Of a DNA stretch of 64,000 nt, positions 3,616 to 64,000 are shown in pieces. The notes under the pieces were generated by a model. The model was not told the origin of the DNA and made no database searches. It was given only the letters and a program-made list of their open reading frames with translations. The translations under genes and the position numbers were made by a program. Origin of the DNA: Endozoicomonas sp. 8E (GTDB lineage: Bacteria; Pseudomonadota; Gammaproteobacteria; Pseudomonadales; Endozoicomonadaceae); assembly GCF_032883915.1 (NCBI RefSeq), contig NZ_CP120717.1, positions 812,501 through 876,500 on the forward strand. Direction: 5' to 3'. Each line of letters opens with the position of its first letter. Position 1 is the stretch's first letter.

Positions 3616-3751
3616 GAGCAGCCTTATACATCAGAGGTGATGGGCATATAATTAAAGAAGGTCAAGATGCCAGATCAGGAAGCCTCAGGTTGGCGGTCAG
3701 ACTTAAGCCTGACCTGGCGAAAAATGATTGGATGGATTAATCCTTAGTCAA

Positions 3752-14267: not shown

Positions 14268-14355
14268 GGTGAGGTGTCCGAGTGGCCGAAGGAGCACGCC
14301 TGGAAAGTGTGTATACGGAAACGTATCGAGGGTTCGAATCCCTCCCTCACCGCCA
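14268..14355 (+). tRNA. serX: tRNA-Ser (anticodon GGA)
   Basis: A class II tRNA with a long variable arm. The acceptor GGTGAGG pairs with CCTCACC, the T arm is GGTTCGAATCC, the anticodon loop is CTGGAAA and CCA is encoded. It is nearly identical to E. coli tRNA-Ser(GGA). The gene symbol follows E. coli usage. Confidence 0.95.
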
Positions 14356-14374
14356 GTGAACAATTTAGTATTAC

Positions 14375-14451
14375 GCGCTCGTAGCTCAGCTGGATAGAGT
14401 ACCTGGCTACGAACCAGGCGGTCGTAGGTTCGAATCCTACCGAGCGCGCCA
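14375..14451 (+). tRNA. tRNA-Arg (anticodon ACG)
   Basis: A cloverleaf with acceptor GCGCTCG/CGAGCGC, D arm GCTCAGCTGGATAGAGT, anticodon loop CTACGAA, T arm GGTTCGAATCC and encoded CCA. It lies 19 nt after tRNA-Ser, probably one transcript. The prophage starts a few hundred bases downstream, but no copy of the tRNA 3' end was found at the far side within the window. Confidence 0.95.
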
Positions 14452-14456
14452 TCTTC

Positions 14457-14486
14457 AGAAAGCCCTATTTTTATAGGGCTTTTTGT
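14457..14486 (+). terminator. Rho-independent terminator after the tRNA pair
   Basis: AAAGCCCTA and TAGGGCTTT form a stem with a short T-rich loop, and a TTTTT tail follows. Confidence 0.9.
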
Positions 14487-14828
14487 CGTTTTGGGGGGTG
14501 GTTTTTTCTTGCCCTCTGTCTGTTTTATAGTCTTCCGATGTCTTATAACTGGGTACTTGGAAAATTCTTAAAAAAGCCGATTTTTGGCCATTTTTGGGCC
14601 GTTTTTTCTCTCTCCTCTCTGAATAACGTACTTCGGCCACTTTGAAGTACGTTACTTGATTTCCCCTTTATAATCAGTTGGTTGCCGGTGGTTTTTGGCT
14701 ATTCAAACGGTTGTTTAGTTTGCACTTTTGTAGCGGTATGCGCAGGGAACCATCAGCGAACTTTGGCGAAGTGATTTCTTTATTTGTTATGCTCTGTTTC
14801 CCTTCATTTGTATTGAGAGACTTTAATC
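14487..14828. other. Non-coding stretch between tRNAs and prophage genes
   Basis: No credible gene. A perfect 11-bp inverted repeat (TAACGTACTTC at 14624-14634, complement at 14644-14654) with a 9-nt loop is the only clear structure. The left attachment site may lie here, but without a matching right end it cannot be defined. The AT-rich stretch just before 14829 can serve as a promoter. Confidence 0.5.
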
Positions 14829-15242: not shown

Positions 15243-15664
15243 TCTTCCGGTATCCCCAAAGCTTTCTTCTGCTCAGACCAGAGCAGGGGAAAGGGCTTCA
15301 TAAAGTCGGCCAGAGTCAGTCCTCCCAAACTTCTGCCATCAATGATGGCCTCCTGAATCTCTGGCGACAGGGTGGTGAGTCGAAGGATTCGAGACGCGTA
15401 GCTGACACTGGTAATCCCTTCTTTCTGAGCCAGTGTTTTCAGGTGCTGCTCTTTGCCAGATTCCAATGCCTTCAACCAACGATGGGCCCTGACCAGAGCA
15501 TTCCTCAAAGCCGGATCGACCTCTTCCAGTGCCGGACGACCATCCGGGGTGGTGATCTGGCTCTTGCCCTTGCGGTTGATGAACTTGATGGGGATGTGCA
15601 CCAGAATGCAGTTCTCGTCTTCGAGATAGGTGCGGGTCGCCTTGCCGGTTACTTTTATGGCCAT
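15239..15664 (-). CDS. Putative HTH protein of the integration operon
   Basis: A 141-aa protein. The N-terminal half is beta-rich, and the centre (about residues 60-115) has a helix-turn-helix-like run: HLKTLAQKEGITSVSYASRI then LTTLSPEIQEAIIDGR. This resembles the ParB/KorB-type HTH found in recombinase-linked proteins. It overlaps the recombinase end by 10 nt and is clearly translated with it. It may act as a DNA-binding accessory or directionality factor; that role is inferred from position. Confidence 0.65.
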   Translation of the reverse strand: MAIKVTGKATRTYLEDENCILVHIPIKFINRKGKSQITTPDGRPALEEVDPALRNALVRAHRWLKALESGKEQHLKTLAQKEGITSVSYASRILRLTTLSPEIQEAIIDGRSLGGLTLADFMKPFPLLWSEQKKALGIPED

Positions 15665-17016
15665 GTCACTTCTCCTTGTAACTCATTGGTAATGTTGGGT
15701 ATCCCTTCCTGATGGAAGCGAATCTCAATGCCCTGCTGGTGGACGTCTATACGACTGACCAGTAGTTTCATTAAACGGCGCTGTTCTTCCGGGAACAGCA
15801 GGTTCCAGATGTCCGACAGATCATTCAGGGCTTCTCGAACCTGATCTTCATTGAACGTGTCCTGATCCGTCAGCATCTGCCAGGTGGTGAAAATGATCTC
15901 CGGTTGCTTGAGTAAATCCCGAAGATGCTCGACTACCAGAAACTCAATCTCTCTGGCTGGCAGGGTAGGCAGGGGTGAGTGTTTATGACCATGCTTCCGG
16001 GCCGTGCTGCTGACGTAGTAGCGGTGCAGTTTGCCCTTGCTGCGGCTGGCCGTGGGTATCAGGGCTTCCTGCTCCGGTCCGAACAGAAAACCCCGCAGAA
16101 AGGAACGTGTGTTGCGGTGTCGGCTGTCTGTCTGCCGGGTCGAGCTGTTGCCCTGGAGAATGGTTTCGACCTGCTCCCAGACGTCGGGTTTGATAAGGGC
16201 TTTATGCTCACCCGGATACCATTCTCCCTTGTGGCCGATCTCACCTTTATAGAGGCGGCTCTTCAACAGCTTGTAGATGGCGGTGCGAGTGAACTTTTTG
16301 CTACCGGCGACTTGGCCACCCTTGCGCGGCAGTCGTTTGGTTCGAAAGCCCATCTCATTAATCCGTTCAGCGGTTTCAATCTGAGAGCGGGTTTCAATAA
16401 AAGTCTTGAAGATCTCCCGGATAATTACTGCTTCCCCCTCATTAGGGATCAGCTTGCGATCCACCACGTCATAACCCAGCGGTGGCGTCCCACCCATCCA
16501 CTTGCCTTTCTTCTTGGAGAGCAGGAACTTGTCCCTGATTCGCTCGCCAGTCACCTCACGCTCAAACTGGGCAAAGGATAGGAGAATATTAAGCGTCAGT
16601 CGTCCCATGCTGCTGGTGGTATTGAACTGCTGGGTGACGGCGACAAATGACACCTGATGCTTGTCGAACACCTCCACCAGCCGGGCAAAGTCAGCCAGCG
16701 ACCTGGAGAGACGATCCACTTTATAAACCACCACTACATCAATCTTTCCGGCTTCCACATCTTTCATGAGACGTTGAAGCGCAGGCCGTTCCATGTTCCC
16801 TCCAGAAAAGCCGCCATCGTCGTATTCGTCCGGCACCAGAATCCAGCCTTCCTGTTTCTGGGAGGTGATATAAGCTTCACCCGCTTCCCTTTGGGCGTGG
16901 AGTGAATTGAACTCCTGCTCCAGACCTTCTTCCGAAGACTTGCGGGTATAGACTGCACAGCGCTTGAGATCCTTAATCTTGCTTTTACTTCTGCCCATGG
17001 GTTTTTCCCCGCTCAT
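15655..17016 (-). CDS. Large serine recombinase (site-specific integrase)
   Basis: A 453-aa serine integrase. The N-terminal resolvase domain has the nucleophile Ser in AVYTRKSSEEG (about residues 21-31). It continues through VYKVDRLSRSL and ends with the long helix ILLSFAQFEREVTGERIRDK. A recombinase domain follows (PPLGYDVVDRKL, then ETAERINEMGF), then a DNA-contacting C-terminal region where the usual zinc-ribbon Cys are not evident. It should catalyse integration through a covalent Ser-DNA link and probably excision with a helper. GTG/ATG choice: ATG 17016 is preceded by GGGGAG and overlaps the DUF2924 gene. Shorter than many phage integrases (about 500-600 aa). Confidence 0.92.
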   Translation of the reverse strand: MSGEKPMGRSKSKIKDLKRCAVYTRKSSEEGLEQEFNSLHAQREAGEAYITSQKQEGWILVPDEYDDGGFSGGNMERPALQRLMKDVEAGKIDVVVVYKVDRLSRSLADFARLVEVFDKHQVSFVAVTQQFNTTSSMGRLTLNILLSFAQFEREVTGERIRDKFLLSKKKGKWMGGTPPLGYDVVDRKLIPNEGEAVIIREIFKTFIETRSQIETAERINEMGFRTKRLPRKGGQVAGSKKFTRTAIYKLLKSRLYKGEIGHKGEWYPGEHKALIKPDVWEQVETILQGNSSTRQTDSRHRNTRSFLRGFLFGPEQEALIPTASRSKGKLHRYYVSSTARKHGHKHSPLPTLPAREIEFLVVEHLRDLLKQPEIIFTTWQMLTDQDTFNEDQVREALNDLSDIWNLLFPEEQRRLMKLLVSRIDVHQQGIEIRFHQEGIPNITNELQGEVTWP

Positions 17017-44263: not shown

Positions 44264-44770
44264 ATGACAGTAGAACAAGGAAGTCAGCTGATGGATATAA
44301 GGAAAACAGAGGGAAAGTCGGTTACATTTTCTGAACCTGAGACGTCTGAATCGCCTGAAGATGATGCTTCCTGGGAATCTCGAAAAGTTGAAAAAGCCTG
44401 CAAAAGAAAACCAGAAGAAACCACACAAGAAGCTCCAGAGTCCAAAAAAAGTAAATTGGAGCCCAATGTAGCATCAGTTTCAGATAAATCTTTGCAGGAA
44501 AGAGATCTGGAAGAAATGAACGCTGCTTTAGTAGAAGCAAGGTTGTATCCTGGTTGGGAGTCAAGGGAAAGCAGGGCTCTCGAGGATATGAATTGGTACG
44601 ACACAATTGTTCGTCGAATGAAAGATGAAGAGCTTTCTCTGGAATCTTTATCCAACAAAAACTCAGAAGAAGTGATGGCATTTTTGCTTGAAAATGAAGT
44701 CATCACGCAGAGTATGTCGACGTATATAAAAGAGGACGGAGTTGACTTGGAAGGCTCTCCGTACTGGTAA
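44264..44770 (+). CDS. Charged hypothetical protein in the tail operon (accessory)
   Basis: A 168-aa protein with a low-complexity Glu/Ser/Lys-rich first half (SEPETSESPEDDASW) and basic patches KACKRKPEE and PESKKSKLE. A helical second half follows (LEEMNAALVEARLYPGWESR, VMAFLLENEVITQSM). No phage family is recognised and GC is lower than in the neighbours. The basic patches resemble eukaryotic nuclear-import signals, so an effector-like accessory gene is possible, but this is speculative. A terminator follows it. Confidence 0.55.
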   Translation: MTVEQGSQLMDIRKTEGKSVTFSEPETSESPEDDASWESRKVEKACKRKPEETTQEAPESKKSKLEPNVASVSDKSLQERDLEEMNAALVEARLYPGWESRESRALEDMNWYDTIVRRMKDEELSLESLSNKNSEEVMAFLLENEVITQSMSTYIKEDGVDLEGSPYW

Positions 44771-51746: not shown

Positions 51747-53834
51747 TTATCTATTTTTAAAAATATCAATTTTGGTTTCAAGACACTTTCTTAACACCAA
51801 ATCATTGGTTCCAACACTGAACCAGCTATCAGGCTTCTGGAAGAAATCCAGCCCCCGTCCAATCTTGATAATCCAGCCATTGTCGATACGAATTTCCCGG
51901 TCATGCATATGCTCATTCACTTTCAAATCAAGCTCAATATCCATTTCCAGAAGGCTCTGTTTCAGCTCTCCCAGCTTGTCTGACATATCCTTAACATCGG
52001 TATCATCATCGTAACTGGTGATCAGCCGGATTTTTTTGATGGTCGATGTCTTGATAACGGCTTCACAGAAACGGACAAAATTCTGTATCTGGTGAGTCAG
52101 GCGGATATATGGGTCTTCAATCTCAATGGATTTAGCCCCCTCAAGATAGGGGCTGATAATCGACTCATAGCTGTAACCAGTTGCGCCATAGTGAATGGTA
52201 AAATGCTGCTCCTGAAGCTGAGCTTCAGGCTCGGCATTTACGTTCTCAGTTGTGACAGAAGTCTTGTTGAGTACATCATCGAATACCGAACCCTTGTCGG
52301 GAATCTCCGCTACTGGAGTTTCAATAACAACCGTTTCATCATCACCATGAATATCCCGGCGAACAGGGTCTTGGGTGGCCGGTGCCAGCCTTGACTCTGG
52401 ACAGTAAACAATGATTTCCTGACCATTAGCGTTAATATAAGAGAGATTGATCTTGGCAAATTCATCGTCGGATTTGCGTTTGTTCATCTGCTCCTTTACA
52501 CGACGCCGAGCTTCAACCGCATAAGCGACATATTCTTCAAATTCTTCATCAGAAGGTGAACCACTGGGATGAAGGATTTTCAAGAAGGCCGCAACGGTTT
52601 TCTTGATGCCTTTTTCATCTCGCCCTTCCACCGCTTTGCCAAGGCGAATACGCTTGCTGACATCTTCATAGCGGTTGGTATGCTTCAGCTGATAGTGAAA
52701 GGCTTCCGCCAGATAATCGGTAATAAACCCATAATTATCGGTTAAGAACTCACTGCTATTCTTAGGCATTTCCCAGCCGGGTAGGTAACAGGCAAAACGA
52801 TCCATGACCGCCAGGTCAAACTCTTTGGGGAGGGGCTGGAACAGGTCAAAAACCTCGGAGTTAACAATCTGGTCCACCGATAAATCCAGGTTACCCACAA
52901 ACGCCATGGAGGCATCGGCAATCACCTCAACGCCCCGAGAGAATCGGCCATTGGCCATAAAGTCCTTCATTATCTGGATAGTGTCATGGTCTTTAACCTT
53001 GATGCCACCCACCTCATCAAAGGCCACGGTATCCCAGAAGCCCACCAGACCGATTTTCTTGCGCTGGTTGTTATAGAACAGCGTCGCTTTGGTTGCCTGG
53101 CCACCGCTGATGAGCGTTGAATAGGGTGAGAACTCACTGAAGAAGTAGGACTTACCGGTGCCCCGTGGCCCCAGTTCAATAAAATTAAAATTGGGTTCCA
53201 CCAAGGGCAGCAAACGGGCAATAAAGTGCATTTTTACCCGATGGGAAAGTTTGCCCGGCTCCAGGCCCACAGAGCGGAGAATAAAGCTCATCCATTCATC
53301 CCGGGAGCAGGCCTGGCGTCCTTCGCAGTACTGATCAAAATTAAATCGGCTTAACTGAATGGGCCGAAAATCTTCAATGTAAAAAGCGTAATCATCGTCT
53401 TCAATGTCGTTATAGGCGATGGTCACCTCTGCCCACAGCCCACCCTGTAAAAGCCGGTCATTGTCACGGTAAAACTTTTCACTGATGGCGACTTTGCGAG
53501 AGTCAAAGTTTTCCAGTGCTGCCCAGTGGCGGCGGTTCTTCTCGACATAGTTAACGTGCACCTTGTCGATAAACCGGTACTTGCCTTTGGTGGCCACTTT
53601 GGACTGTGCCTTGTTGGCTTCGTTAGGACGCACGTAGTTGTCGTTAAGAGTATCCAGCACCGCTTCCATACCAGCCTGAATTTCCGCTTCATCATCGCTG
53701 GCGCAGTAGCGCGCCAGCAAAAACTCCAGCACAAAGGTCGGGACATTAGTGCCTTTTTTAATGCGATGGACCAAGTCTTTCCGAACCACCTTGCCATCAA
53801 ACAGCGTATTAATCTTTTTATCTGTGTTATCCAT
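51747..53834 (-). CDS. brxL: BREX AAA+ protein BrxL with MITD1-like C-terminal domain
   Basis: A 695-aa protein. The N-terminal domain (about 1-200) precedes the AAA+ core with Walker A GPRGTGKSY at 222-230 and Walker B VAFDEVGGIKV. ELGPRGTGKS and GGQATKATLFYNN are signatures of BrxL. A linker (about 460-540) is followed by a last domain (544-695). Instead of the Lon-like region, that domain matches the PLD-like domain of eukaryotic MITD1, with HDREIRIDNGW, then IKIGRGLDFF and KPDSWFSVG close to the human protein as I recall it. BrxL supports host protection in type 1 BREX. The domain swap is inferred from motif recognition. Confidence 0.8.
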   Translation of the reverse strand: MDNTDKKINTLFDGKVVRKDLVHRIKKGTNVPTFVLEFLLARYCASDDEAEIQAGMEAVLDTLNDNYVRPNEANKAQSKVATKGKYRFIDKVHVNYVEKNRRHWAALENFDSRKVAISEKFYRDNDRLLQGGLWAEVTIAYNDIEDDDYAFYIEDFRPIQLSRFNFDQYCEGRQACSRDEWMSFILRSVGLEPGKLSHRVKMHFIARLLPLVEPNFNFIELGPRGTGKSYFFSEFSPYSTLISGGQATKATLFYNNQRKKIGLVGFWDTVAFDEVGGIKVKDHDTIQIMKDFMANGRFSRGVEVIADASMAFVGNLDLSVDQIVNSEVFDLFQPLPKEFDLAVMDRFACYLPGWEMPKNSSEFLTDNYGFITDYLAEAFHYQLKHTNRYEDVSKRIRLGKAVEGRDEKGIKKTVAAFLKILHPSGSPSDEEFEEYVAYAVEARRRVKEQMNKRKSDDEFAKINLSYINANGQEIIVYCPESRLAPATQDPVRRDIHGDDETVVIETPVAEIPDKGSVFDDVLNKTSVTTENVNAEPEAQLQEQHFTIHYGATGYSYESIISPYLEGAKSIEIEDPYIRLTHQIQNFVRFCEAVIKTSTIKKIRLITSYDDDTDVKDMSDKLGELKQSLLEMDIELDLKVNEHMHDREIRIDNGWIIKIGRGLDFFQKPDSWFSVGTNDLVLRKCLETKIDIFKNR

Positions 53835-53837
53835 GGC

Positions 53838-56369
53838 TTATACCGTGTAGTCAGTCTCTAAATCCAACTGGCAATAAGTCGCCATGGTGGAAGGATTTAG
53901 TGCCTTTATTTTAAACTTGCCCTCGAATTCCACCTGCATTTTTACAGTGATTGGCACTTTATTCCCGGGCTTTAATGTGATGGTACCGGTGGCAGGATTG
54001 ACCTCACCGCCGGGTTTGGCTTCACCGACAACATTGCCATTTTTATCCTGGGCTTCCAGCAAGATCTCAAAATCACTGCCGGTGGAGAACATATCATCCG
54101 TTTCTACCGCTATTTCCAGCACTGGCATCCGCGTGGTAATCCGTTTGGCACCATTCTTATAGTTCAGCACCACTTTAGCCTGCTCAATAGCGGTCTGCTT
54201 CGATGCCTCCAGTTTGACGGTAATCACCGGAACCACACACTCCTGCAAAGAGGCACCACCATGATAATAGAGCATTCCCGAGCGATAAGACGCCATGGTT
54301 CTTGGCCCGGCCAGTTTGGCCATATTGCTACGGATGCCGACTTTCTCGGTGGATAGCTCGTAGTGGTTGCTATCAACCGACCCATCACCCAGCAGGCAAC
54401 GTTCATGGATGGTTAGCCAGTCACCACTGGGTTTACCAATAGTGTCTCCGGCCTGGGCATGGGTATTCATAAAGAAGCCGTGGTCAGTGGCAATGACCAC
54501 CTCGTTAAAACCGGCATCTTTCAGCTTGTGGATAGCCACCCGAATACGTTTCAGTGCATTGATGATTTCATTGGGTGCGGTGTCCGGATGGTGTTCAAAA
54601 TGCCCATCAATTTCGACACTGCGCAGTACCAGCAGTTCAGTGCCCGCTTCCAGCTTAAGGCGGTTGCGGACAAATTCTTCGAGCCGACCTTCCTGGAAGC
54701 GATGTCCATAACGTTTGCGAATAAGGTCCATGCGCTGATTAACGTTTTTTACTTTCTGGCCATTAATAGCGGGTAACAGCTTGTTATCGATATTATTGAT
54801 GGTCAGTCCGGTACTGGCATCGGGGAGCAGGCTGGCCATACCCACTAAGGTGATGCTGGGCAGCTGGGCCAGTGCCGGGGTCAATTCAACCTTGCCGTCT
54901 TCCGTCAGCTGCTGTTCAAGGGCAACGCCCAGCTCATAGCGGAGGGCATCCACCATCAGATAGGCGACTTTATGGCCGCTCTGGCTCAGTTTGGGGGCAA
55001 CCAGCTTATCAAATACCTCGGTATTGGCCAGTCTACCAGGGAATGGCCAGCCGGATTGGCTGAGATGCCTGGTGAACAGCGTTTGCAAACTGACGATCAA
55101 ACGGCCGTATTGCTGACGCACCTGCAGCTGCAACGGGTGCATAAGCCCGTGGGCATCTTGCCAGTCATAATCACTGACTGCCTGCTCAAACTCCCGGTGC
55201 AGGCGGTCAACTTCCCGGAACTGGGTGATGTAATAATTGACCAGCGAGTCCATGGACTGGGCATGGTCGGGCAATATCCGCTCATTGTCCTGGCACGCTT
55301 CCACCAGGGCCAGTGCTGAACGCAGCAGATCCCATTGCGCCTGGCTCTCCCCTTTACCAATCCACACGGACTGCACATGGTGGGATAAAATACGACGAAC
55401 AGTATCCGTATCATCTCGTTGCAGGGCGTCCATGGCCTGGTGTAAAAATGTCCGCTCCTCAAAGGGAAACGTATCCCGCTCGCCCAAGTCAGAAATACCC
55501 TGACAATGGTTTGACAGCTCCAGCTCTGCTTCCACTGCCTCCGCCCGTTCAATGTAGGTGGGCTGTGTGCGCCGGTCACTGCGCAGCCGTTCGCAAATAT
55601 CCGCAATCAGCGGTTTGGCGGCTTCTTCAGCTGAAGGTACATTGGTCAGGGGCGGGGGAAGGTCTTGTGGCAGATCAAACACAAATTCACTGAATAGCAC
55701 AAAGCGCCATAACTCATCGGCAATGGCCGACCAGCTTTTAGCACGGGTTTTCAGAGTCAAACCGATACTCGTTTTCAGCAGCTCCCTACTCTCACTGACC
55801 CAGCCTTCAGTGCTATTCAGTGCCACCATCTGCGTATCGCTGGGTACTAGCAGGCTGAACAGAATGTCACGGGTGGATTCCACTTTCAGCGTAGCTTTCA
55901 GCGTCGGCCAGTTTACCCCGCCACCAATGGCATTGATCACATTAAAATCCGGGTTTTTATTTTGCTCAAACACCGCCCTGACCTGGGTAGCAAACTCCGA
56001 TTTAGCCACCAGGCAGATATTGAAAAAGCTGTCGCCATCACCACCGGGGAAAACTGCACCGCAGGCACCGTACAGAGCAAAGGGATCTTTCTGCTTCTGT
56101 TCCTCTTCGGTAGGCACGGTGGCAGGCACGTAGATCAGAAGTTGTTCAATGGTGTTGTGGCCTAATGCCGCCAGTGAGCTGATCCCTTGTGCCCGGGAGA
56201 CAATACTGGACTCGGTGGCATCCACCACTTGTAGCGATTCACTGGCCATATCCAGACAAATCTGGCGGTAACGCTGGTCCGGGTCATAAACCACCAGAAT
56301 GTGGTTGTTCTCGTCTTTGCCAAGGCGGGGGGCAAACACCTGAGTTTGTATATATTCTTGAATGGTCAT
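53838..56369 (-). CDS. pglZ: BREX alkaline-phosphatase-like protein PglZ
   Basis: An 843-aa PglZ of type A. The phosphatase domain contains KVAYLMVDALRYELGVAL (metal-binding Asp near residue 473) and VVIATDHGFFMN near 635, two motif blocks of the alkaline-phosphatase superfamily. It is one of the core BREX genes. The stop lies 3 nt before brxL and the start is 3 nt after the DUF4276 gene, so they are tightly co-transcribed. The length is close to usual (about 830-860 aa). Confidence 0.9.
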   Translation of the reverse strand: MTIQEYIQTQVFAPRLGKDENNHILVVYDPDQRYRQICLDMASESLQVVDATESSIVSRAQGISSLAALGHNTIEQLLIYVPATVPTEEEQKQKDPFALYGACGAVFPGGDGDSFFNICLVAKSEFATQVRAVFEQNKNPDFNVINAIGGGVNWPTLKATLKVESTRDILFSLLVPSDTQMVALNSTEGWVSESRELLKTSIGLTLKTRAKSWSAIADELWRFVLFSEFVFDLPQDLPPPLTNVPSAEEAAKPLIADICERLRSDRRTQPTYIERAEAVEAELELSNHCQGISDLGERDTFPFEERTFLHQAMDALQRDDTDTVRRILSHHVQSVWIGKGESQAQWDLLRSALALVEACQDNERILPDHAQSMDSLVNYYITQFREVDRLHREFEQAVSDYDWQDAHGLMHPLQLQVRQQYGRLIVSLQTLFTRHLSQSGWPFPGRLANTEVFDKLVAPKLSQSGHKVAYLMVDALRYELGVALEQQLTEDGKVELTPALAQLPSITLVGMASLLPDASTGLTINNIDNKLLPAINGQKVKNVNQRMDLIRKRYGHRFQEGRLEEFVRNRLKLEAGTELLVLRSVEIDGHFEHHPDTAPNEIINALKRIRVAIHKLKDAGFNEVVIATDHGFFMNTHAQAGDTIGKPSGDWLTIHERCLLGDGSVDSNHYELSTEKVGIRSNMAKLAGPRTMASYRSGMLYYHGGASLQECVVPVITVKLEASKQTAIEQAKVVLNYKNGAKRITTRMPVLEIAVETDDMFSTGSDFEILLEAQDKNGNVVGEAKPGGEVNPATGTITLKPGNKVPITVKMQVEFEGKFKIKALNPSTMATYCQLDLETDYTV

Positions 56370-56371
56370 TA

Positions 56372-56986
56372 TTAATTCCAGGCTAATGCGGTGTTAATGG
56401 CAGCGACAAAGGCGTTAAAACTGGGGGAGTTATTGTGTGCAGGGTTCATATACTGGCCAATCTCCCGGGCGCATTGGAGCTTGTTAATGCCGGTTGAGAA
56501 GTAACCCGCTTTTTTCATCTCACGTTCCAGGGCTTCCCAGGTGCCACCGGTAATTTCATCCGGGTTTCGGTACTTGGCTCTGCGGGGAATATTTTCCGGA
56601 ACCCTGGGATAAGCTTGGCGAACGGCAGACCAGTCGCCAAAGAACCAGGACTCCAGCTCTTCAATCACCACACGGTTAACCACCTGAAATCGTTCAGCAC
56701 CTTGAGTTTTGGTCACCAAACCAGCTTCAATGGCCATCTGCTCAAGCTGTTGTTTCAGCTGCAGGCAGTCATCCCGGTCACGATCCACCAATACCATAAT
56801 CGCATGTTCGGCGGGTAGCCAGGCGCTATAGCCCCTTAAACGACTGGGTAATTGTTTCAGCAGGTCATCCTTGCACTGAAATTGAATGATCTGAAACTCA
56901 ACATCCCCCAGTATTTTTGGCAACAACTTCTCCAGAGCCGCTTCCATGGAGATCTCTTCAACAAAGACAATGAGTTTCTCCAACAT
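56372..56986 (-). CDS. DUF4276 protein (Toprim-like nuclease candidate)
   Basis: A 204-aa protein matching DUF4276. LIVFVEEISMEAALEKLLPK gives the first Glu, HAIMVLVDRDRDDC the DxD-type acidic motif near residue 90, and VIEELESWFFGDW the later family block. The arrangement resembles the Toprim metal site of OLD-type nucleases. It is 3 nt from the ATPase upstream and from pglZ downstream, so the pair is embedded in the BREX operon. Its probable role is the effector nuclease of an ATPase/nuclease pair. Confidence 0.75.
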   Translation of the reverse strand: MLEKLIVFVEEISMEAALEKLLPKILGDVEFQIIQFQCKDDLLKQLPSRLRGYSAWLPAEHAIMVLVDRDRDDCLQLKQQLEQMAIEAGLVTKTQGAERFQVVNRVVIEELESWFFGDWSAVRQAYPRVPENIPRRAKYRNPDEITGGTWEALEREMKKAGYFSTGINKLQCAREIGQYMNPAHNNSPSFNAFVAAINTALAWN

Positions 56987-56989
56987 GAC

Positions 56990-58231
56990 TTACTTCCCTG
57001 CTTTGCTGTTGGGTTTAGGCGCTCCAAAGTTGACCAGTGGGTCGCCAATCCCAAAGTGACCCTCCATCCATAAATAGCCCAACGAAGCGCCCGCATTCAG
57101 CAGCTCTTTTACGCCCTGAATATCACTGGCGCGCACTGCCTGGGTAAAGCCCTGCTCATCCCGGTAGAGAATGCGCACCTCTTCGGCCCGCATGGCGTTC
57201 AGCAGAAACGGTGAATGGCTGGTAATCAGCAACTGGGAATTTTGTGCGGCACTGCGGCACTCTTCTGCAAGTTCTGGCAGCAATCGAGGGTGTAAAAAGT
57301 TTTCTGGTTCTTCAATACCGATAAAGCGGGGTGGCTCCGGATCATGCAGCACCGTTAAGTAAGCCAGCATTTTCATGGTGCCATCGGAGGCAAATTTCGA
57401 CAGCACCGGTTGATCAAAAGGTGCATCTTTTATCTGTAATAGCAGACGACCATCGGGCATCGGGTCTGCTGCAACCTTTTCCAGCCGGGGAATGCGCTGG
57501 CGCAGGTTGGCAAAAATAGCTTCCAGCCGTTCCGGGTGTTGCTCTTTTAGGTACTGGATTACGTTGGGCAGGTTTTCACCGCCTTTGCTTAAACGCTCCT
57601 GGGGGCCGGCTTCCGGTTGATTGCGGGTTTGGTCAATGGAGAGATAGGAGACATACCAGTCGGTAATAAACTCCCGCAGGGCGGCAATACGCGGATGTTC
57701 CGAAAGCTGCCCCAGGGTGTTGACGGCAATCAGGTCCGAAGAGCGCAGGTTGGTTTCTGGCCGATCATCATCTTCATCGGGGGTTTCGCCACTGGCAGCA
57801 CGACCCTTGCCCCGGCTGAACTCCAGAAAGCGGAAAGGCTTACCTTTAGCGCCCCGTCGCCACTGTAGCCACTCCTCCACCACTTCCGGGCCTCTGCTGC
57901 CCTCATCAATGGCTAGATGGTAGGTGATAATGGGGGTGCCAGGCTTCTCCCGATATTTCAGTTCAAACAGGATGGGGCCGGAGGCGCCACGGCTTTTCAG
58001 CTCCTTGCCCCGGCCCCGGCGGTCCCAGGCGTGGCGCAGGCCAAACTGAAAACACTCCGACAGAAAGTTAAATACATCAAAAATGGTGGACTTGCCGCTG
58101 CCATTGGGGCCCAGCAGCACCGTTAGGGGGGTAAGGTTCTTAAGTTCGATCTTACGCAGAGCCCGGTAGTTTTCAACTTTGATGGATTCTATTTTGGGTA
58201 TACCGGGTCGTTTTTTTGGTTGTTTTGCCAT
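56990..58231 (-). CDS. AAA_15/AAA_21 ATPase (OLD/RecF-like)
   Basis: A 413-aa SMC-like ATPase. Walker A is [12 protein letters not shown] near residue 40. [20 protein letters not shown] is Walker B with the following D-loop region near 300, and [14 protein letters not shown] carries the switch His. The fold is that of OLD, RloC and AriA. The chosen ATG at 58231 has GGAGG 5 nt before it; longer starts at 58243 and 58279 are less likely. It would sense phage and control the DUF4276 partner. BREX operons with inserted PARIS genes are known. Confidence 0.8.
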
Positions 58232-58340
58232 CATGGCCTCCATTAAACAGCCATGAGCGGAAAATACCGCTCCCCTCAAGCATTGAAGATAAGAAAGTGC
58301 CAGACTGCGGCATTTTCATTATAGGTAGCACGATAGTGGA

Positions 58341-61300
58341 TCAGTCGCTTTCGGCGATCAACTGTTTCACCAGTTCGTTTAAGGCACTATCGCTTAGGTC
58401 TTTTGGTTGCCATTCCAGCTTGGTGTCTCCAGTGAGTTTTTTACCGCGCTTAACCGGTACTTCCACTTCATGCCAGAAATGGTCTTCCACATCGTGGGCA
58501 ATCGCCAGGCTGCGATCCTGATGGCATTTGCGCAATACTCGCTCTGGCCAGATACTGCAGGCTAGGAGAGCCCAATCGTAGTCGCCTTTTTCCAGTTTTT
58601 GCCAGGTCTCTTTCAGCTTTTTCTGCCAGGCTTTGTGCTGGAACAGTTTCCACAGTGGGGCTGCGGTAATCTGTACGCCGTCGTTTAGATTGGGTTTCCA
58701 GACTTTGGCCAGGCCTAGCAGTTCATCGCGGAAGTCCCGGAGTTCACTGGTCAGATCGGTCAGTTTGGCCAGTTCTTTTTCTTCTTGGCTGCTTCGGGGG
58801 GATTTGCCTTGCAGGGCATTCAGATCTTTCTCTACTTGCTGAAGTTTCGGGTCAACAAAATCATTGACGCAGGTGTAGAGGGTTTGTTCGTCTAGGCGGT
58901 GATAGTAGATCCAGAGTGTGTAAGAGCTGGATGGGGTTTGTAGTGGCCAATAGATCGGGGCTTGGCGTCGACTTTTGGAATATTTTTGCAAATGGAAGGA
59001 GAAAAAACTACCAGTGTTGCTGAGAGCATTTAAAAGATTAGAAATAGAAAAATTTTCTTCATCTTTTTGTCGTGCAGGGCAATTCTTATCCAGCCAGTAA
59101 TTTATTTCTTCTGCCAACTTACCCGCTTCGTAAATTTCAGGCTTGGTGGTATTTCTGCTACAAAGCTTTACTTTAGAAAAATGAGAATCAATTTCACTTC
59201 TGGAAGTGTCACCTCCCCATCTTCCAAATAGTTGACCAATAATCATCGAAAGCGTGGAATATTCAAACTCCGCAAATGAAATCGGAAATAACCATTCCTT
59301 CTCATCAAACTCATTTCCTTTTAAATTCTTTTCAATTTCCTTTCTCGTTGAATTCAAATCTTGCAATACAGATTTGTGAAGATCACAGTATGATGTATAT
59401 GAGTTTTCTAGGCTTCTATCAATAAAGTATTTTTTTTCTTTGAAATTTATATGAGATTCGTCGTATAAATCTAATTTGCTAACAAGTTCGACACACTTTT
59501 TTCCAAGTTCAGAAAAAACTACTAGATTTTCAGGTGATGGCTGTGGAATCTTTAGCTCACGGATTATTCCAAGATCATAACTTCTTGCAGCTGCTCCTGA
59601 AGCCCCGACCCGTAAATTGACTAAATTTTGGATTTTTTTAGTATTGCAAATAGCAAGCATTGCATAATTTATATCCTCTGATGCTGCTATTATTGCAGGA
59701 CCTTTCGGCGAGGTATAACACCCTTCAGGTAACACTCTAAAGCTGATGTCGCTCGTAGTTCTTTGTGTATATGTCAGACCTGGTAAAAAATAAAACTTTG
59801 AATCCCCTGGACGTCGGAATACAGCGCCGCCATCCTGTTGTTTTTTATGATTTATAACTAAGTGTATGTCAGTGCTATATCTTTTAAATTCACCACCTTT
59901 AGCGTACCAATTCCACTTGCTTTTAATGCCAATATCATCAGGTCTAACCTCCCACCAACATCTCATATCCTGATTTAAGTCAAATAATTCTGGTCCTCTT
60001 ATTAGTTCTCCCCATGAATTACCCAGTTCTACGTAATCAATATCACAATCAAGTTCAGCCCAATAGGCCAAAGGTTTACCAGGGAGTTTGGATAAATTAG
60101 TGCATTTATGTGTAAATACTCGATTTATGTGTGAAAAATCAAAATTAACTAAACCTAATAAATCAGAGGCTTTCTCCTTATGGAGTCGACAATCTAAAAA
60201 TATTGAACCTCCAGTTTTTGTATTTTTCATTACATAAGCTGCTGCCTCAACCATTGCATCAAGAACACCATCTCCTAAATCTGCAAAAAGATAAAGTTCA
60301 TCTCTCTCAAAAAGGTGAAAGTCACGCCAGCCCTGAAATGTTTTTAAGAAAAATGGAGTACGATTTGAAAGTGCTGCTGTAATCTCTGAGACTTCATTTG
60401 CCCTTTCAAGGAAAGCTATTAGAATGTCGGTTGTGGAAAATTTGTAGTTTTTATAGAGATACTTCCTAGTATTAATTGCAGGTTCTCCAAAAGGCGGATT
60501 CATCAAAACCACATCAAACCGCTTCCGACACAACTCAATAAAAGCAAACCCCTTAGCCGTATCTTCCGCAAACAACCGTTTCTGATCCGCAGAAGATTCT
60601 GCCTTATCTGCATAATCACTTAACGCCTGCAAAATATGCTGTTCAGCATCATCCCAGAAGGTTTCATTATCAATACCGCGCAGATCAAAACCCAGCTTCT
60701 TCTGAGGCGTTGCCGCATCCAGCTCGGATGGGAACATATCCCCCATGGTATTGCTGCCGCTCTCTTTCAGCCACTGCTCCCGTGCTTCTTGAATGGCGGT
60801 TTGCATCTCTTCTTCAATTTTCAGCAGGGTGCCCGCTTCACCGGCCAGCTGCATCTTATCGAAAATTACTTCCAGCAGTTGACCCAGGACTGGCGGGTGC
60901 AGCTTCTCGGTAAACTCCTGCAGCAGCGTTTTTTCACCGGGCATGGGCTCAGCACAGACAATATTAGATTTAACAATGGCGGGTCGTTGCTGAGGCTTAA
61001 TACCTTGTTGATGCCAGGTTCGCTGGGCCCGTTGCCACAAGCTCAACCCGGCAATTTGCACGGCTCGGGGGTCGATATCCACCCCATGAATATTGTGTTC
61101 AATTATCAGTTTGGGAATCTGTTGCTCAAATTCTTCCCAGTTGGCATACGTGTTTTGAAGGGCGTCCTGACCCTCTTCCCGAATAAAGGCATCGGGCCCC
61201 AGCTGCTGTTCCAGTTGCCAGGCTTCCCGATAGATTCGTTCAAACAGATCAAAGGCGTAGAGGCCAAAGTGCATGGAGCCGCAGGCCGGGTCTAGCATAC

Positions 61301-62264
61301 GAATGGAACGTGGGTCTTTTAACGGTCGGTGCGGAATATAGACTGGCTGCTGCAGTAATTCCTCCTGGCTTAATGACTCCGTTTCACCCTCAGGACTTTC
61401 CGGCGCGGCTTCATTGGGTTTTAGAAAAATCTCGGTAGGGCGGCGCACCAGATAACGACAGTTATCTACCAGTGCGGTATTGCCCTGAGTCATTTCATAC
61501 CAGATACGCCCCAGGGTATTGTCCGTTAAAAACTCCACCACATAGCGGGGCGTAAAGAACTGGTTGCGTACCGCCAGCTCCCGGCTGTTGCGGGGCGACT
61601 GGGATTCCGCACGCATTTGCCGCCGCTCTTCCTGGGAGTTGAAGTACTGGTAAATCCAGCCAATGGTCTCATCTTCCGCCCACAGGTGTTCAATATCGGG
61701 GTGATTGATCTCATCCAGCAGGGCCAGCAGGGCACTTTCCCGTGGGAAGAGCTGCCCCTGGGCGCTATGGCGATCAAACAGCACCGCCAAATCCAGACTG
61801 AATTCATCAAACAGGCTGAACAGGTAATTGCGGTAGGCATCACCGGTTTCCCCATGAGCCGTGCCGGCCATTGGTTTGTACAGCTGGAAACCTTTGGAGC
61901 TATAACTCTTGGCTACCGATTCCAGCAGAAAACCCCGGGCCTCTGCCATCCGCAGTGCCGCCAGGCGGTTCAATACGGTAAACGCCTGTTCTCGTATGAT
62001 TCGGCCAAGGGCCTGTTGGGTGCGTTGCTGGTCCCCTGTGCCGGTGGTGACTAAATAGTGGGCAAGGGTCTCCCGCAATAGATGGGCCGTCTGCCGTTGG
62101 CGGTTATCCAGATGAGTAAGGCTGGCCATATCGGCCACCGCCCCTTCACCGGGGTCCAGGCCATAGTTGGCCTGGAGCTGTCGGGTAAATTCCTCAACCA
62201 GCAGCGCGCGGGCACTGCTGACAAACCGTTGCAGACGGTTGCGGGTGCTTTGATCAAAAGACAT
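58341..62264 (-). CDS. pglX: BREX DNA adenine methyltransferase PglX
   Basis: A 1307-aa methyltransferase for the host-specific N6-adenine mark. The SAM-binding motif LDPACGSMHFGLYAFDLF is near residue 325 and the catalytic NPPFGEP near 588. RNQFFTPRYVVEFLTDNTLG comes before them. A middle part (residues about 600-1095) is clearly lower in GC than the flanks and should be the target-recognition region. The length is typical of BREX-1 PglX (about 1200 aa). It lies 29 nt after brxC. Confidence 0.93.
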   Translation of the reverse strand: MSFDQSTRNRLQRFVSSARALLVEEFTRQLQANYGLDPGEGAVADMASLTHLDNRQRQTAHLLRETLAHYLVTTGTGDQQRTQQALGRIIREQAFTVLNRLAALRMAEARGFLLESVAKSYSSKGFQLYKPMAGTAHGETGDAYRNYLFSLFDEFSLDLAVLFDRHSAQGQLFPRESALLALLDEINHPDIEHLWAEDETIGWIYQYFNSQEERRQMRAESQSPRNSRELAVRNQFFTPRYVVEFLTDNTLGRIWYEMTQGNTALVDNCRYLVRRPTEIFLKPNEAAPESPEGETESLSQEELLQQPVYIPHRPLKDPRSIRMLDPACGSMHFGLYAFDLFERIYREAWQLEQQLGPDAFIREEGQDALQNTYANWEEFEQQIPKLIIEHNIHGVDIDPRAVQIAGLSLWQRAQRTWHQQGIKPQQRPAIVKSNIVCAEPMPGEKTLLQEFTEKLHPPVLGQLLEVIFDKMQLAGEAGTLLKIEEEMQTAIQEAREQWLKESGSNTMGDMFPSELDAATPQKKLGFDLRGIDNETFWDDAEQHILQALSDYADKAESSADQKRLFAEDTAKGFAFIELCRKRFDVVLMNPPFGEPAINTRKYLYKNYKFSTTDILIAFLERANEVSEITAALSNRTPFFLKTFQGWRDFHLFERDELYLFADLGDGVLDAMVEAAAYVMKNTKTGGSIFLDCRLHKEKASDLLGLVNFDFSHINRVFTHKCTNLSKLPGKPLAYWAELDCDIDYVELGNSWGELIRGPELFDLNQDMRCWWEVRPDDIGIKSKWNWYAKGGEFKRYSTDIHLVINHKKQQDGGAVFRRPGDSKFYFLPGLTYTQRTTSDISFRVLPEGCYTSPKGPAIIAASEDINYAMLAICNTKKIQNLVNLRVGASGAAARSYDLGIIRELKIPQPSPENLVVFSELGKKCVELVSKLDLYDESHINFKEKKYFIDRSLENSYTSYCDLHKSVLQDLNSTRKEIEKNLKGNEFDEKEWLFPISFAEFEYSTLSMIIGQLFGRWGGDTSRSEIDSHFSKVKLCSRNTTKPEIYEAGKLAEEINYWLDKNCPARQKDEENFSISNLLNALSNTGSFFSFHLQKYSKSRRQAPIYWPLQTPSSSYTLWIYYHRLDEQTLYTCVNDFVDPKLQQVEKDLNALQGKSPRSSQEEKELAKLTDLTSELRDFRDELLGLAKVWKPNLNDGVQITAAPLWKLFQHKAWQKKLKETWQKLEKGDYDWALLACSIWPERVLRKCHQDRSLAIAHDVEDHFWHEVEVPVKRGKKLTGDTKLEWQPKDLSDSALNELVKQLIAESD

Positions 62265-62293: not shown

Positions 62294-64000
62294 TTATTCG
62301 CTGAGGCTGATTTCCAGCTCAAATTCATGGGCGAGAGCCAACTCACCCTGAAGACGTTGCAGTTCGCTAATCAGTACGTTCAACTCTTCAAGGCTGGTAA
62401 TGCGTTTTTTTGGTTTCAGGCTACGGGTGATTTTTGCCGGGGCCGCTGTGCCTTCAGCCTGTTTTGCGGCCTCCTGTTCTTCCCGCAGTTTTTCCTGGAG
62501 AAGCTGTTGCCCTCTGTGCTGAACACGTTTTTTCATATCCTGCAGCTCGGACTGAATGGTGAACTCCTGGTTGATCAGTGTTTGCAAGCCAGAGAGATCT
62601 TCTGTAGCGGTAACGGTGAGTTGTTCCAATTCCGCCAGCTGGGCGTTTTGTTCCTGCTGATTGAGATACTGCCATTGAGCAACGCGAGCCAGATCCTGCT
62701 CCGCCTCTTTGATGCGGTTGCCCTGTTCCTGCTGCATGGCCAGCACGGTATCGCGAACCCGGGTTTTGATATCCGTAAGCTGTCCTGCAAACTGGCTTTT
62801 GTAGCTAAGGAACTCACTGTGATTCAGCCGTTTCTGTAAGTCGTTCAATAGGTCTGCCAGATCGGTTTTTAATTGGCCCGGAGTGCCACTATTGGGTAAA
62901 CGATCCAGTGCACTGCGATGTTGCTGAAGGCTGTTCAGCGTGTCTTCCAACCCATGCTCCAGGCTCTGTTTGAGTTCTGCTGCCCACTTCAGACTGTTGT
63001 AAAGGTCAGAGTCTTCTCCGCCCAATCGAGACGGGGCATCGGATGCATCGGTAGACAACACATCCCGGATATTGTTACTAAGGGATTCAATACGATCTGC
63101 ACCGGGTAAGCTCAGACGTTTGAGTTTTTCCGCCAGTGGTCCGTAGCTGTGCAATAAATCCGGGAACAGTTTGATGGCCGTTTTGCTGATCTCATCTTCC
63201 AGGGGCACCACCATCTCTCCGCTCAGGTCGGTCAGGCGCTCGGCCGCCTTGGCCATCACCTCCATACTGGGGCGTTCTTCACGCAGTGAGACGCCAATGG
63301 ACCGGAAACTGTTGTTGGTTTTCAGGGCATCAATGGCTTGCTGACCATTAACGGTGACTTCCCGACCGGCCACCCGGAGTTTGATTTCGCCGGCCACCAA
63401 CATGGCCGCCACCAGGTAGCGCAAGGTATCCTGGGACCAGCCATAGGGGGCATCGCTGAAGATGTCGCTGAGCCGTTTACCTTCAATGGAACCCTGGCGC
63501 TCGATCATATCCCGGATGCTGGTAATGGCTTTATGGTCGGTGTTGATAGAGGGTTGTCCACCGACGCGCTGTACCAGGCTGAGGGGGTCGATATCGCTGG
63601 TAATTCCGGCCAGGCTGTTGGTGTTCAGGAATTTTTCCGCCAGATTGGTGTTGGCCCGCACGGGAGCTTCATGGTAACGGTCGAACACCTGTTCTGCCAC
63701 ATCGGCCAGATGTTTTTTGGCTGCTTCGGTCAGATTCAGGTCCAAGTTTTCGACGGCAGTGACTTCACCCCGGAAGATAAACGACCCTTGTTGTAAACTT
63801 TTGCGGATCAGAACTTCTAGTTCACCAAATTTTCGAGTAGCAATACTTTGCTGGCTAGCGCAATATTTGTTGATATCTTGATCAGGCTCATTTCGATAAT
63901 CATTCGCAATCTTACGGCAACGGTAAATCTCACCTATCAACTCATCCATCTCGGGTGTAGTGCGCCCAATTGCAAAAATAATATTTTGAGTAGTTTTGTG
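62294..64000 (-). CDS. brxC: BREX ATP-binding protein BrxC, C-terminal part (5' end outside window)
   Basis: A partial gene with 568 residues visible; the frame stays open to the right edge (NIIFAIGRTTPE precedes the first internal Met). The family total is about 1200 aa, so the ATPase domain is missing. Recognisable blocks are SDAPYGWSQDTLRYLVAAML and RLTDLSGEMVVPLEDEISKT. A long coiled coil (about residues 330-500) and a Lys-rich end follow. BrxC is a core gene of BREX and is required for defence and methylation. brxA and brxB should lie just to the right. Confidence 0.88.
   Translation of the reverse strand, partial: HKTTQNIIFAIGRTTPEMDELIGEIYRCRKIANDYRNEPDQDINKYCASQQSIATRKFGELEVLIRKSLQQGSFIFRGEVTAVENLDLNLTEAAKKHLADVAEQVFDRYHEAPVRANTNLAEKFLNTNSLAGITSDIDPLSLVQRVGGQPSINTDHKAITSIRDMIERQGSIEGKRLSDIFSDAPYGWSQDTLRYLVAAMLVAGEIKLRVAGREVTVNGQQAIDALKTNNSFRSIGVSLREERPSMEVMAKAAERLTDLSGEMVVPLEDEISKTAIKLFPDLLHSYGPLAEKLKRLSLPGADRIESLSNNIRDVLSTDASDAPSRLGGEDSDLYNSLKWAAELKQSLEHGLEDTLNSLQQHRSALDRLPNSGTPGQLKTDLADLLNDLQKRLNHSEFLSYKSQFAGQLTDIKTRVRDTVLAMQQEQGNRIKEAEQDLARVAQWQYLNQQEQNAQLAELEQLTVTATEDLSGLQTLINQEFTIQSELQDMKKRVQHRGQQLLQEKLREEQEAAKQAEGTAAPAKITRSLKPKKRITSLEELNVLISELQRLQGELALAHEFELEISLSE

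What the first reader, a model, noticed from the sequence alone, without database searches (positions are those of the whole stretch)
51750..52205. BrxL carries a MITD1-like PLD domain in place of a Lon-like end
The last 152 residues read as a separate domain, beginning HFTIHYGATGYSYES. The block HDREIRIDNGW followed by IKIGRGLDFF, KPDSWFSVG and ETKIDIF closely tracks the C-terminal domain of eukaryotic MITD1, an ESCRT-III-linked protein with a PLD-like, inactive fold. A BREX AAA+ motor joined to a domain with eukaryotic membrane-remodelling relatives is unexpected. It suggests that this BrxL targets membranes or a partner protein rather than acting as a protease-like factor.
Basis: partly seen in the sequence, partly recalled or inferred. 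Interest (0 to 1): 0.85.

Follow-up and report, generated by a model that had tools for sequence, protein, structure and literature searches.

The report
Phage-defence motor with MITD1-like end
A bacterial anti-phage motor protein (BrxL of a BREX system) ends in a phospholipase-D-fold domain that is about half identical to the tail of the human cell-division protein MITD1; such ends on BrxL are common and most likely the nuclease-type ends already described, but the kinship with MITD1 hints that a human protein part may come from bacterial phage defence.

Summary
Residues 544-695 of BrxL (window 51750-52205, minus) match Pfam MIT_C over the whole profile (E 4e-54), human MITD1 by sequence (50% identity, E 5e-41) and, as a confident AlphaFold2 model (pLDDT 94), by fold (TM 0.93). 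The Lon-like end is absent. It is no freak: of 20 BrxL genes drawn by their ATPase domain, 9 had this end, 9 a Lon-like end, 2 none. A 2026 paper reports 1030 of 2913 Type-1 BrxL with an 'HKD endoDNase' end bearing an HRD motif; this domain's conserved HxRx4D fits. Membrane targeting is not supported; a DNA-acting phospholipase-D-type effector is likelier (catalysis untested). New here: end type follows the BrxL core tree; human MITD1 and the window's bacterial clade form one side of a well-supported split (99/96, 100/99) against the other bacterial MIT_C sampled, and MITD1 keeps the conserved site residues except one (D to N). MITD1's tail may thus descend from a phage-defence domain; only one eukaryotic sequence was used; root and exact place are unresolved. 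The BREX operon and a prophage also lie between two copies of a 147-base tRNA-Arg repeat.

The parts
51747..53834 (-). brxL, 695 aa: BrxL core plus MIT_C (MITD1-like PLD-fold) C-terminal domain
   Evidence: ORF; Pfam; NCBIfam; PADLOC full-length BrxL model PDLC02508 matched over 1-694, E 2e-288
53412..53804 (-). BrxL_N, residues 11-141
   Evidence: Pfam PF20442 E 2.3e-46
52443..53384 (-). AAA+ ATPase domain, residues 151-464; P-loop GPRGTGKS at 222-229
   Evidence: Pfam PF13337 E 1.4e-121; G225 T226 G227 K228 invariant in two BrxL-MIT_C alignments; Foldseek hits BrxL 8emc/8emh, then (after MITD1) MCM
52206..52391 (-). linker, about residues 482-543, largely low-confidence in the model
   Evidence: AF2 pLDDT under 50 at 497-515 and 525-537; core-to-domain gap 47-124 aa, median 75, in 159 BrxL-MIT_C ORFs
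51750..52205 (-). MIT_C domain with its lead-in, residues 544-695 (profile match 553-693 = 51756-52178)
   Evidence: Pfam E 3.7e-54; MITD1 E 5.3e-41; AF2 pLDDT 94.1 and Foldseek TM 0.93 to MITD1
51846..51905 (-). HxRx4D...RGLD stretch, residues 644-663 (H644, R646, D651, R660, D663)
   Evidence: Conservation over 90 sequences: 90, 88, 79 (N in 9), 90, 90
52101..52115 (-). DPYIR block, residues 574-578, followed by invariant Q582 and N585
   Evidence: D 86/90, R 89/90, Q 90/90, N 90/90; all kept in human MITD1
53838..56369 (-). pglZ of the same operon
   Evidence: Pfam PglZ E 1.3e-15; PADLOC PglZ
56372..56986 (-). DUF4276 protein (HEC-01B-like) inside the operon
56990..58279 (-). AAA_21 ATPase (HEC-01A-like) inside the operon
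58341..62264 (-). pglX, BREX-1 adenine methyltransferase
   Evidence: NF033452, 645 bits against cut-off 500
62294..64000 (-). brxC, runs past the window's end; brxB and brxA follow outside the window (L209:2479-3123 and 3038-3829, minus)
   Evidence: NF033441 match under its cut-off, as expected for the part inside the window (257 against 400); open frame continues in L209; Pfam BrxB and BrxA

Best explanation
This is a BrxL of a complete Type-1 BREX operon in which the place of the C-terminal Lon-like domain is taken by a single-motif phospholipase-D-superfamily domain of the MIT_C family. Most likely the N-terminal and AAA+ parts assemble as a ring on phage DNA that the BREX complex has marked as foreign, and the PLD-type domain, on a long flexible linker, pairs with a second copy to form one HxRx4D site that nicks or holds the DNA phosphate backbone. 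Shown here: domain make-up, fold (predicted), conserved residues, linker, operon, clade-specific distribution. Inferred from known BrxL: ring assembly on DNA. Inferred and untested: pairing, catalysis, DNA as substrate. On kinship: human MITD1's C-terminal domain and the window-type BrxL end are closer to each other than either is to the other bacterial MIT_C sampled, most simply because the human domain goes back to the bacterial family.
For: Fold: Foldseek of the domain model hits MITD1 (E 1.8e-20), then down to E 0.008 only PLD-superfamily proteins: poxvirus F13, PLD3 crystallised with ssDNA, a PLD. Site: H, R, RGLD and Q39/N42 invariant or nearly so in 90 sequences. Hosts: 154 of 172 ORFs with a match also hold the BrxL core, and of the 18 others 10 are weak matches under 30 bits; another strong host is a DEAD-MZB helicase next to an HSDR_N protein. 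Literature: 1030 of 2913 Type-1 BrxL with an HKD-endoDNase, HRD motif, in place of LonP (PMC12839542, section 19 read); BrxL is an ATP-dependent DNA-binding chambered assembly (PMC10164562, abstract in the listing and passages). Kinship: split A+MITD1 against the rest 99/96, 100/99 with a mixture model, 99/95 with remote outgroups (bootstrap then SH-aLRT), 98.1/100 (SH-aLRT then bootstrap); at 26 sites that separate clade A from the rest, human has the A state at 14, the rest's at 3, neither at 9.
Against: The motif is HxR, not HxK, so catalysis is unproven; D108 is N in 9 of 90, S or A in one each, and N in human MITD1. Sequence similarity to PLDc_2 is weak: 4 of 90 members touch it, best E 0.048; the PDB profile search finds MITD1 and nothing else under E 0.04. 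That this domain is the paper's 'HKD' rests on motif, place and share; its supplement was not read. For the kinship: one eukaryotic sequence, about 150 columns, a long human branch. Three of four trees put human outside bacterial clade A (A without human 87/39; 93/79; 73/60), one beside the Hymenobacter members of A (86.5/55); neither placement nor other rootings are rejected (p-AU 0.28-0.61).
Confidence: 0.6

Rival explanations
1. The domain is a non-catalytic structural module: it binds phosphate or DNA and couples two BrxL rings tail to tail, as the inactive Lon-like end does in Acinetobacter BrxL.
For: It occupies the place of an inactive domain whose known job is ring-ring dimerisation (passages of PMC10164562). 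HxR in place of HxK; D/N variation at position 108. Human MITD1 keeps the same residues and is thought of as a PLD-like domain without known catalysis (recalled; the structure paper that I looked up is not held).
Against: Invariance or near-invariance of H101, R103, R117 and D120 among members down to 26-30% identity to the window is more than a dimer face needs, though a binding site would explain it. The linker is long (median 75 aa).
Confidence: 0.27
2. One reading: the domain targets BrxL to membranes or to a protein partner, as in ESCRT-linked MITD1.
For: Close kinship with MITD1. A dynamin-type GTPase of a Thiodictyon plasmid ends in the same domain.
Against: No MIT domain in BrxL; other hosts are a DEAD-MZB helicase, a Sel1-repeat protein near a methyltransferase and a helicase, and an IF2_N protein. 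MITD1 is brought to ESCRT-III by its MIT domain (PMC9477494 passages), which is what BrxL lacks.
Confidence: 0.08
3. The resemblance came from a eukaryote-to-bacterium transfer: a MITD1 tail was captured by clade-A BrxL.
For: Clade A and the other MIT_C BrxL are separate clades of the core tree and could have gained the domain apart; human lies outside A in three of four trees.
Against: MIT_C in bacteria is far more diverse than clade A, with several BrxL clades and at least four other hosts, and A plus human sits inside that diversity when remote relatives are added (rooting weak).
Confidence: 0.12

Closest known systems
BrxL with C-terminal HKD/HRD endoDNase of Type-1 BREX (NAR 2026, gkag035, PMC12839542; first report there credited to Li et al. 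2025, NAR gkaf357, not read)
   Same: Same position in place of LonP, same K-to-R motif, same operon type
   Different: The paper's main text has no MITD1, MIT_C, PF16565 or ESCRT (0 occurrences), and 'eukaryot' only in 6 reference titles; that its domain is this one is by motif, place and share, its supplements were not read
Human MITD1 C-terminal domain (PDB 4a5z, 2ymb)
   Same: 50% sequence identity, TM 0.93, the listed conserved polar residues except D108 (N)
   Different: Joined to an ESCRT-III-binding MIT domain instead of an AAA+ core
Acinetobacter BrxL (PDB 8emc, 8emh)
   Same: BrxL_N and AAA+ core, 44% identity over about 480 columns
   Different: Lon-like C-terminal domain, no MIT_C
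PLD-superfamily nucleases such as PLD3 and PLDc_2 proteins
   Same: Fold, and the place of the HxK/R motif
   Different: K replaced by R, one motif per chain, weak sequence similarity

Membership tests
MIT_C (PF16565) | Profile score over the curated cut-off | tested here: met
   183 bits against 25 for the end alone; all 90 aligned relatives match at E 1 or better
MIT_C (PF16565) | MITD1 C-terminal fold | tested here: met
   Predicted model, TM 0.90-0.93 to five MITD1 chains
BrxL (TIGR02688) | Core profile over cut-off | tested here: met
   486 against 329 bits
BrxL (TIGR02688) | Place in a BREX operon with pglZ, pglX, brxC, brxB, brxA | tested here: met
Lon-ended BrxL (TIGR02653) | Lon-like C-terminal domain and score over cut-off | tested here: not met
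   Match stops at 482 of 675, 563 against 628 bits; seven Lon-ended controls match to 671-674 of 675, six of them over cut-off and L187 at 613
MITD1 protein family | N-terminal MIT domain | tested here: not met
   No MIT domain in the Pfam scan of the whole protein
HKD nucleases of the PLD superfamily | PLD fold | tested here: met
   Foldseek: F13, PLD3, PLD follow MITD1
HKD nucleases of the PLD superfamily | HxK(x)4D motif (recalled definition) | tested here: not met
   HxR in 88 of 90, D at +7 in 79 of 90
HKD nucleases of the PLD superfamily | Phosphodiesterase activity with two motifs per site (recalled) | not testable with these tools
   No dimer prediction or assay available

The most novel reading that the evidence does not exclude
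The phospholipase-D-like tail of the ESCRT-linked human protein MITD1 descends, by transfer from a bacterium, from the effector domain of a BREX anti-phage BrxL (clade A, the window's type), and still carries the domain's substrate site; the 'inactive' human domain may therefore bind or cut nucleic acid or another phosphodiester.
Probability: 0.4. Interest if true: 0.78.

Novelty: new member of a known kind. Interest (0 to 1): 0.5.

Why it matters
BrxL is the motor of Type-1 BREX, and how it restricts phage is open; a PLD-type end in a large share of BrxL makes a direct test possible (site mutants of one domain). The half-identical human MITD1 tail turns a cell-division protein into a possible descendant of phage defence and says which residues to test in it. 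The match of end type to the BrxL core tree (46 rows) suggests that the two ends are stable alternatives, not assembly accidents.

Tried and rejected
Chance similarity: rejected (E 4e-54 and 5e-41, next PDB hit 0.55). Assembly artefact: rejected (138 distinct C-termini among 159 BrxL-MIT_C ORFs, some loci being the same gene). Standalone clade-A MIT_C as a non-BrxL source: not found; L154/L175 and L003 have BrxL core sequence beside them, L099 and L116 are short frames not followed further, L025 is a PglZ-BrxL hybrid on a 4.6-kb metagenome contig, possibly a misassembly. Weak MIT_C hits around 20 bits with frames of 350-445 aa: ABC transporter ATPases by Pfam for L016 and L172 and by the same VTHDQ stretch for L017-L019 and L173; they fell under the 60-bit limit and are not in the trees. 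Rows dropped from the domain trees: matches under 60 bits or shorter than 125 aa, near-duplicates over 88% identity; searches used hand-picked subsets of 52 and 53 rows, without the long-branched non-BrxL rows. From the core tree: over 82% identity for MIT_C rows and over 95% for the others, cores under 420 aa. A first core tree with 18 rows and motif-based labels split the MIT_C labels and put a clade-A row under another label; replaced by score-based labels. Whether all MIT_C BrxL form one clade: not decided (p-AU 0.158). MITD1-like domains in viral contigs from the human sequence: 9 pattern matches, none a relative; phage records: none; but IMG/VR viral contigs hold 27 relatives of the bacterial alignment, mostly BrxL by motif and length, whose viral nature I did not check. 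Paper searches linking MITD1 or PF16565 with bacteria, BREX, prokaryotic architecture or gene transfer, or BrxL with MIT or phospholipase D (34 and 106 list only 10 of 2,766 and 10 of 1,480 papers): besides PMC12715929, which names PF16565 and BrxL together, no listed paper was seen to make the link; this says nothing about papers not held or not listed.

Full report
WHAT IS THERE. The window's minus strand carries brxL, 695 aa, at 51747-53834. Pfam gives BrxL_N (11-141), BrxL_ATPase (151-464) and MIT_C (553-693, E 9.5e-53); the last 152 residues alone give MIT_C and no other family at E 0.01 (E 3.7e-54). Human MITD1 is found in PDB at E 5e-41, 50% identical, next hit 0.55. The model of Lon-ended BrxL stops at the core and stays under its cut-off, whereas seven Lon-ended controls match it end to end. 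AlphaFold2 on an alignment of 54 rows gives pLDDT 94.1 for the domain; Foldseek finds MITD1 (TM 0.90-0.93, rmsd 1.4-1.8), then down to E 0.008 only PLD-superfamily proteins: poxvirus F13, PLD3 with ssDNA, a PLD. In the full-length model the core resembles BrxL 8emc/8emh and more remotely MCM, the end resembles MITD1, and the two are joined by a stretch of low confidence.

THE OPERON. brxL is the last gene of a complete Type-1 BREX operon: brxA and brxB (just outside the window), brxC (open frame), pglX (NF033452 over cut-off), an AAA_21 plus DUF4276 pair resembling HEC-01, pglZ, brxL. The best match in named genomes is an Endozoicomonas MAG (99% in the domain), so the genome, whose name is not given, is probably Endozoicomonas or near.

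HOW COMMON. One scan of the genome collection (84,980 species by the tool's description) gave 551 pattern matches, 474 of them relatives; the best 80 were kept. IMG/VR viral contigs gave 27, their viral nature unchecked. A profile search found the domain over cut-off in 7 of 398 genomes of the window's phylum, 26 of 394 (phylum of a Chlorobiaceae MAG), 5 of 296 (of a Propionibacterium MAG), 4 of 301 (of a Levilinea MAG) and 13 of 292 (of a Leptolyngbya MAG); each sample includes the centre genome, which was chosen for having the domain. On plasmids it is in 20 records (2 of them in non-BrxL proteins) against 316 with a BrxL core; in phage records none. To avoid choosing by the end, BrxL genes were drawn by their ATPase domain: in 190 and 99 genomes, 20 genes over cut-off, of which 9 had MIT_C (the window's own included, and the centre of the second sample), 9 a Lon-like end and 2 no end (MIT_C places as; six of the nine Lon-like ends confirmed with TIGR02653, the other three by reading and alignment of the tails). 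No other end type was met. Of 172 ORFs with a domain match, 154 hold the BrxL core in the same frame; of the 18 others 10 are weak (under 30 bits), several of them ABC transporters. Other strong hosts: a dynamin-type GTPase (L004), an IF2_N protein (L005), a DEAD-MZB helicase of 1986 aa beside an HSDR_N protein (L174), and, fetched later, a Sel1-repeat protein with a methyltransferase and a helicase nearby (L176).

THE END FOLLOWS THE CORE. In a tree of BrxL cores (46 rows, ends left out) the five labels need four changes, the least possible: window-type MIT_C (clade A) 100/100, other MIT_C 100/100, Lon-like 1 100/99, Lon-like 2 70/94, short 100/99 (bootstrap/SH-aLRT). Whether the two MIT_C clades are one is open: held together p-AU 0.158; clade A with Lon-like 1 p-AU 0.305. 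Both kinds occur in one genus: 2 of 9 other congeneric genomes have BrxL, and both have the Lon-like end.

THE SITE. In 90 MIT_C thinned for redundancy: H101 90/90, R103 88/90, D108 79/90 (N in 9, S and A in one each), R117-G118-L119-D120 90/90, Q39 and N42 90/90, D31 86/90, R35 89/90. H-x-R-x4-D is the HxKx4D motif of the PLD superfamily (recalled) with K to R. Human MITD1 has all of these except N at 108. A bridge to ordinary PLD enzymes exists in one 154-residue frame with HQKFAIID that matches PLDc_2 (E 1.6e-12) and MIT_C (E 2e-4, under cut-off); otherwise the sequence link is weak (4 of 90 touch PLDc_2, best E 0.048).

LITERATURE. PMC12839542 (passages, and section 19 whole) reports that in 1030 of 2913 Type-1 taxa with BrxL the LonP domain is replaced by an HKD endoDNase with an HRD motif, credits a 2025 paper on Menshen (gkaf357, not held) with the first sighting, and proposes DNA degradation. 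Its main text has no MITD1, MIT_C, PF16565 or ESCRT, and 'eukaryot' only in six reference titles. Place, motif, share, and the absence of any third end type in my 20 genes make it very likely that this is the same domain. PMC12715929 names PF16565 and BrxL side by side in one sentence (one passage seen). PMC10164562 (abstract start, passages) shows BrxL as an ATP-dependent DNA-binding assembly whose Lon-like end couples two rings. PMC9477494 (passages) treats MITD1 as an ESCRT-III-binding, PLD-family midbody protein. The MITD1 structure paper that I looked up was not held.

MITD1 KINSHIP. Against 144 distinct bacterial domains, human MITD1 has 36.6-52.4% identity (median 49) to 95 of the window's clade A and 30-40% (median 34.5) to the 49 others; the window's domain is closer to human (50%, 144 bits) than to any of those 49 (at most 42%, 102 bits). 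The split A plus human against the rest has support 98.1/100 (SH-aLRT/bootstrap), and as bootstrap/SH-aLRT 99/96, 100/99 with a mixture model and 99/95 with three remote relatives added (there the rest is not one clade). At 26 sites that separate A from the rest, human shows the A state at 14, the other state at 3, neither at 9. Where human sits relative to A is open: the tree joins it to the Hymenobacter members of A (86.5/55, SH-aLRT/bootstrap); those put it just outside A (87/39, 93/79, 73/60), yet trees that force it beside Hymenobacter score slightly better (p-AU 0.55 and 0.61). No rooting is secured (p-AU 0.28-0.40 for the alternatives). Only one eukaryotic sequence was at hand. Clade-A bacterial members examined are BrxL ends or pieces of one, apart from the hybrid L025 and the two short frames L099 and L116, not followed up.

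MECHANISM. Most likely: ring assembly on DNA through the N-terminal and AAA+ parts (known for Acinetobacter BrxL, inferred here), PLD-type ends on long linkers (median 75 aa) that pair to make a phosphodiester site and nick or hold the DNA. A purely structural role as ring coupler is the main rival; membrane targeting is unlikely. No step of the mechanism was tested here.

VERDICT. Real, well supported, most likely already described as a kind; its MITD1 kinship was not seen discussed in the papers searched here (within the limits of those lists) and is testable.

Noticed in passing
window 14348-14494 and L209:4784-4930 (genome 880,783-880,929, about 4.3 kb past the window's end): A 147-base direct repeat, 146 of 147 identical, that spans a whole tRNA-Arg(acg) gene, flanks an integrase (15655-17016), phage genes from terminase to tail (30280-51680) and the whole BREX operon. 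It suggests that BREX is carried at one end of a roughly 54-kb tRNA-integrated prophage; two native tRNA-Arg copies are the alternative. In the Endozoicomonas MAG locus L047 the DNA past brxL does not match these phage genes.
   Followed up: partly
window 56372-58279: An AAA_21 ATPase and DUF4276 pair resembling PADLOC HEC-01 sits between pglX and pglZ; another MIT_C BREX operon, L006, carries PDDEXK and Shedu proteins there.
   Followed up: no
L004:9634-12474: A plasmid-borne dynamin-type GTPase of 947 aa that ends in MIT_C, the one host seen that hints at membranes.
   Followed up: partly
L174:3588-11500: A 1986-aa DEAD-MZB helicase with a C-terminal MIT_C beside an HSDR_N protein, perhaps an undescribed defence pair; L170 has MZB and a weaker, under-cut-off MIT_C match.
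   Followed up: no
L176:129-12945: A gene row of a helicase, an Eco57I-type methyltransferase, two ORFs not searched, a 1065-aa protein with MIT_C and 16 Sel1 repeats, and another protein: a possible BREX- or DISARM-like cluster.
   Followed up: no
L168:1417-2343 and L169:1399-2358: Frames of about 310-320 aa with a remote MIT_C-like half carrying HDRYLISN or HDRYLITD, in genomes of the sample; function unknown.
   Followed up: no
L020-L046 (IMG/VR contigs): 27 contigs filed as viral carry relatives of the domain, mostly in BrxL-sized frames; whether they are phages, prophages with flanks or plasmids was not checked.
   Followed up: no
window 44264-44770: A charged 168-aa ORF inside the phage tail module, not searched against any library; overlapped on the other strand by two ORFs.
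   Followed up: no
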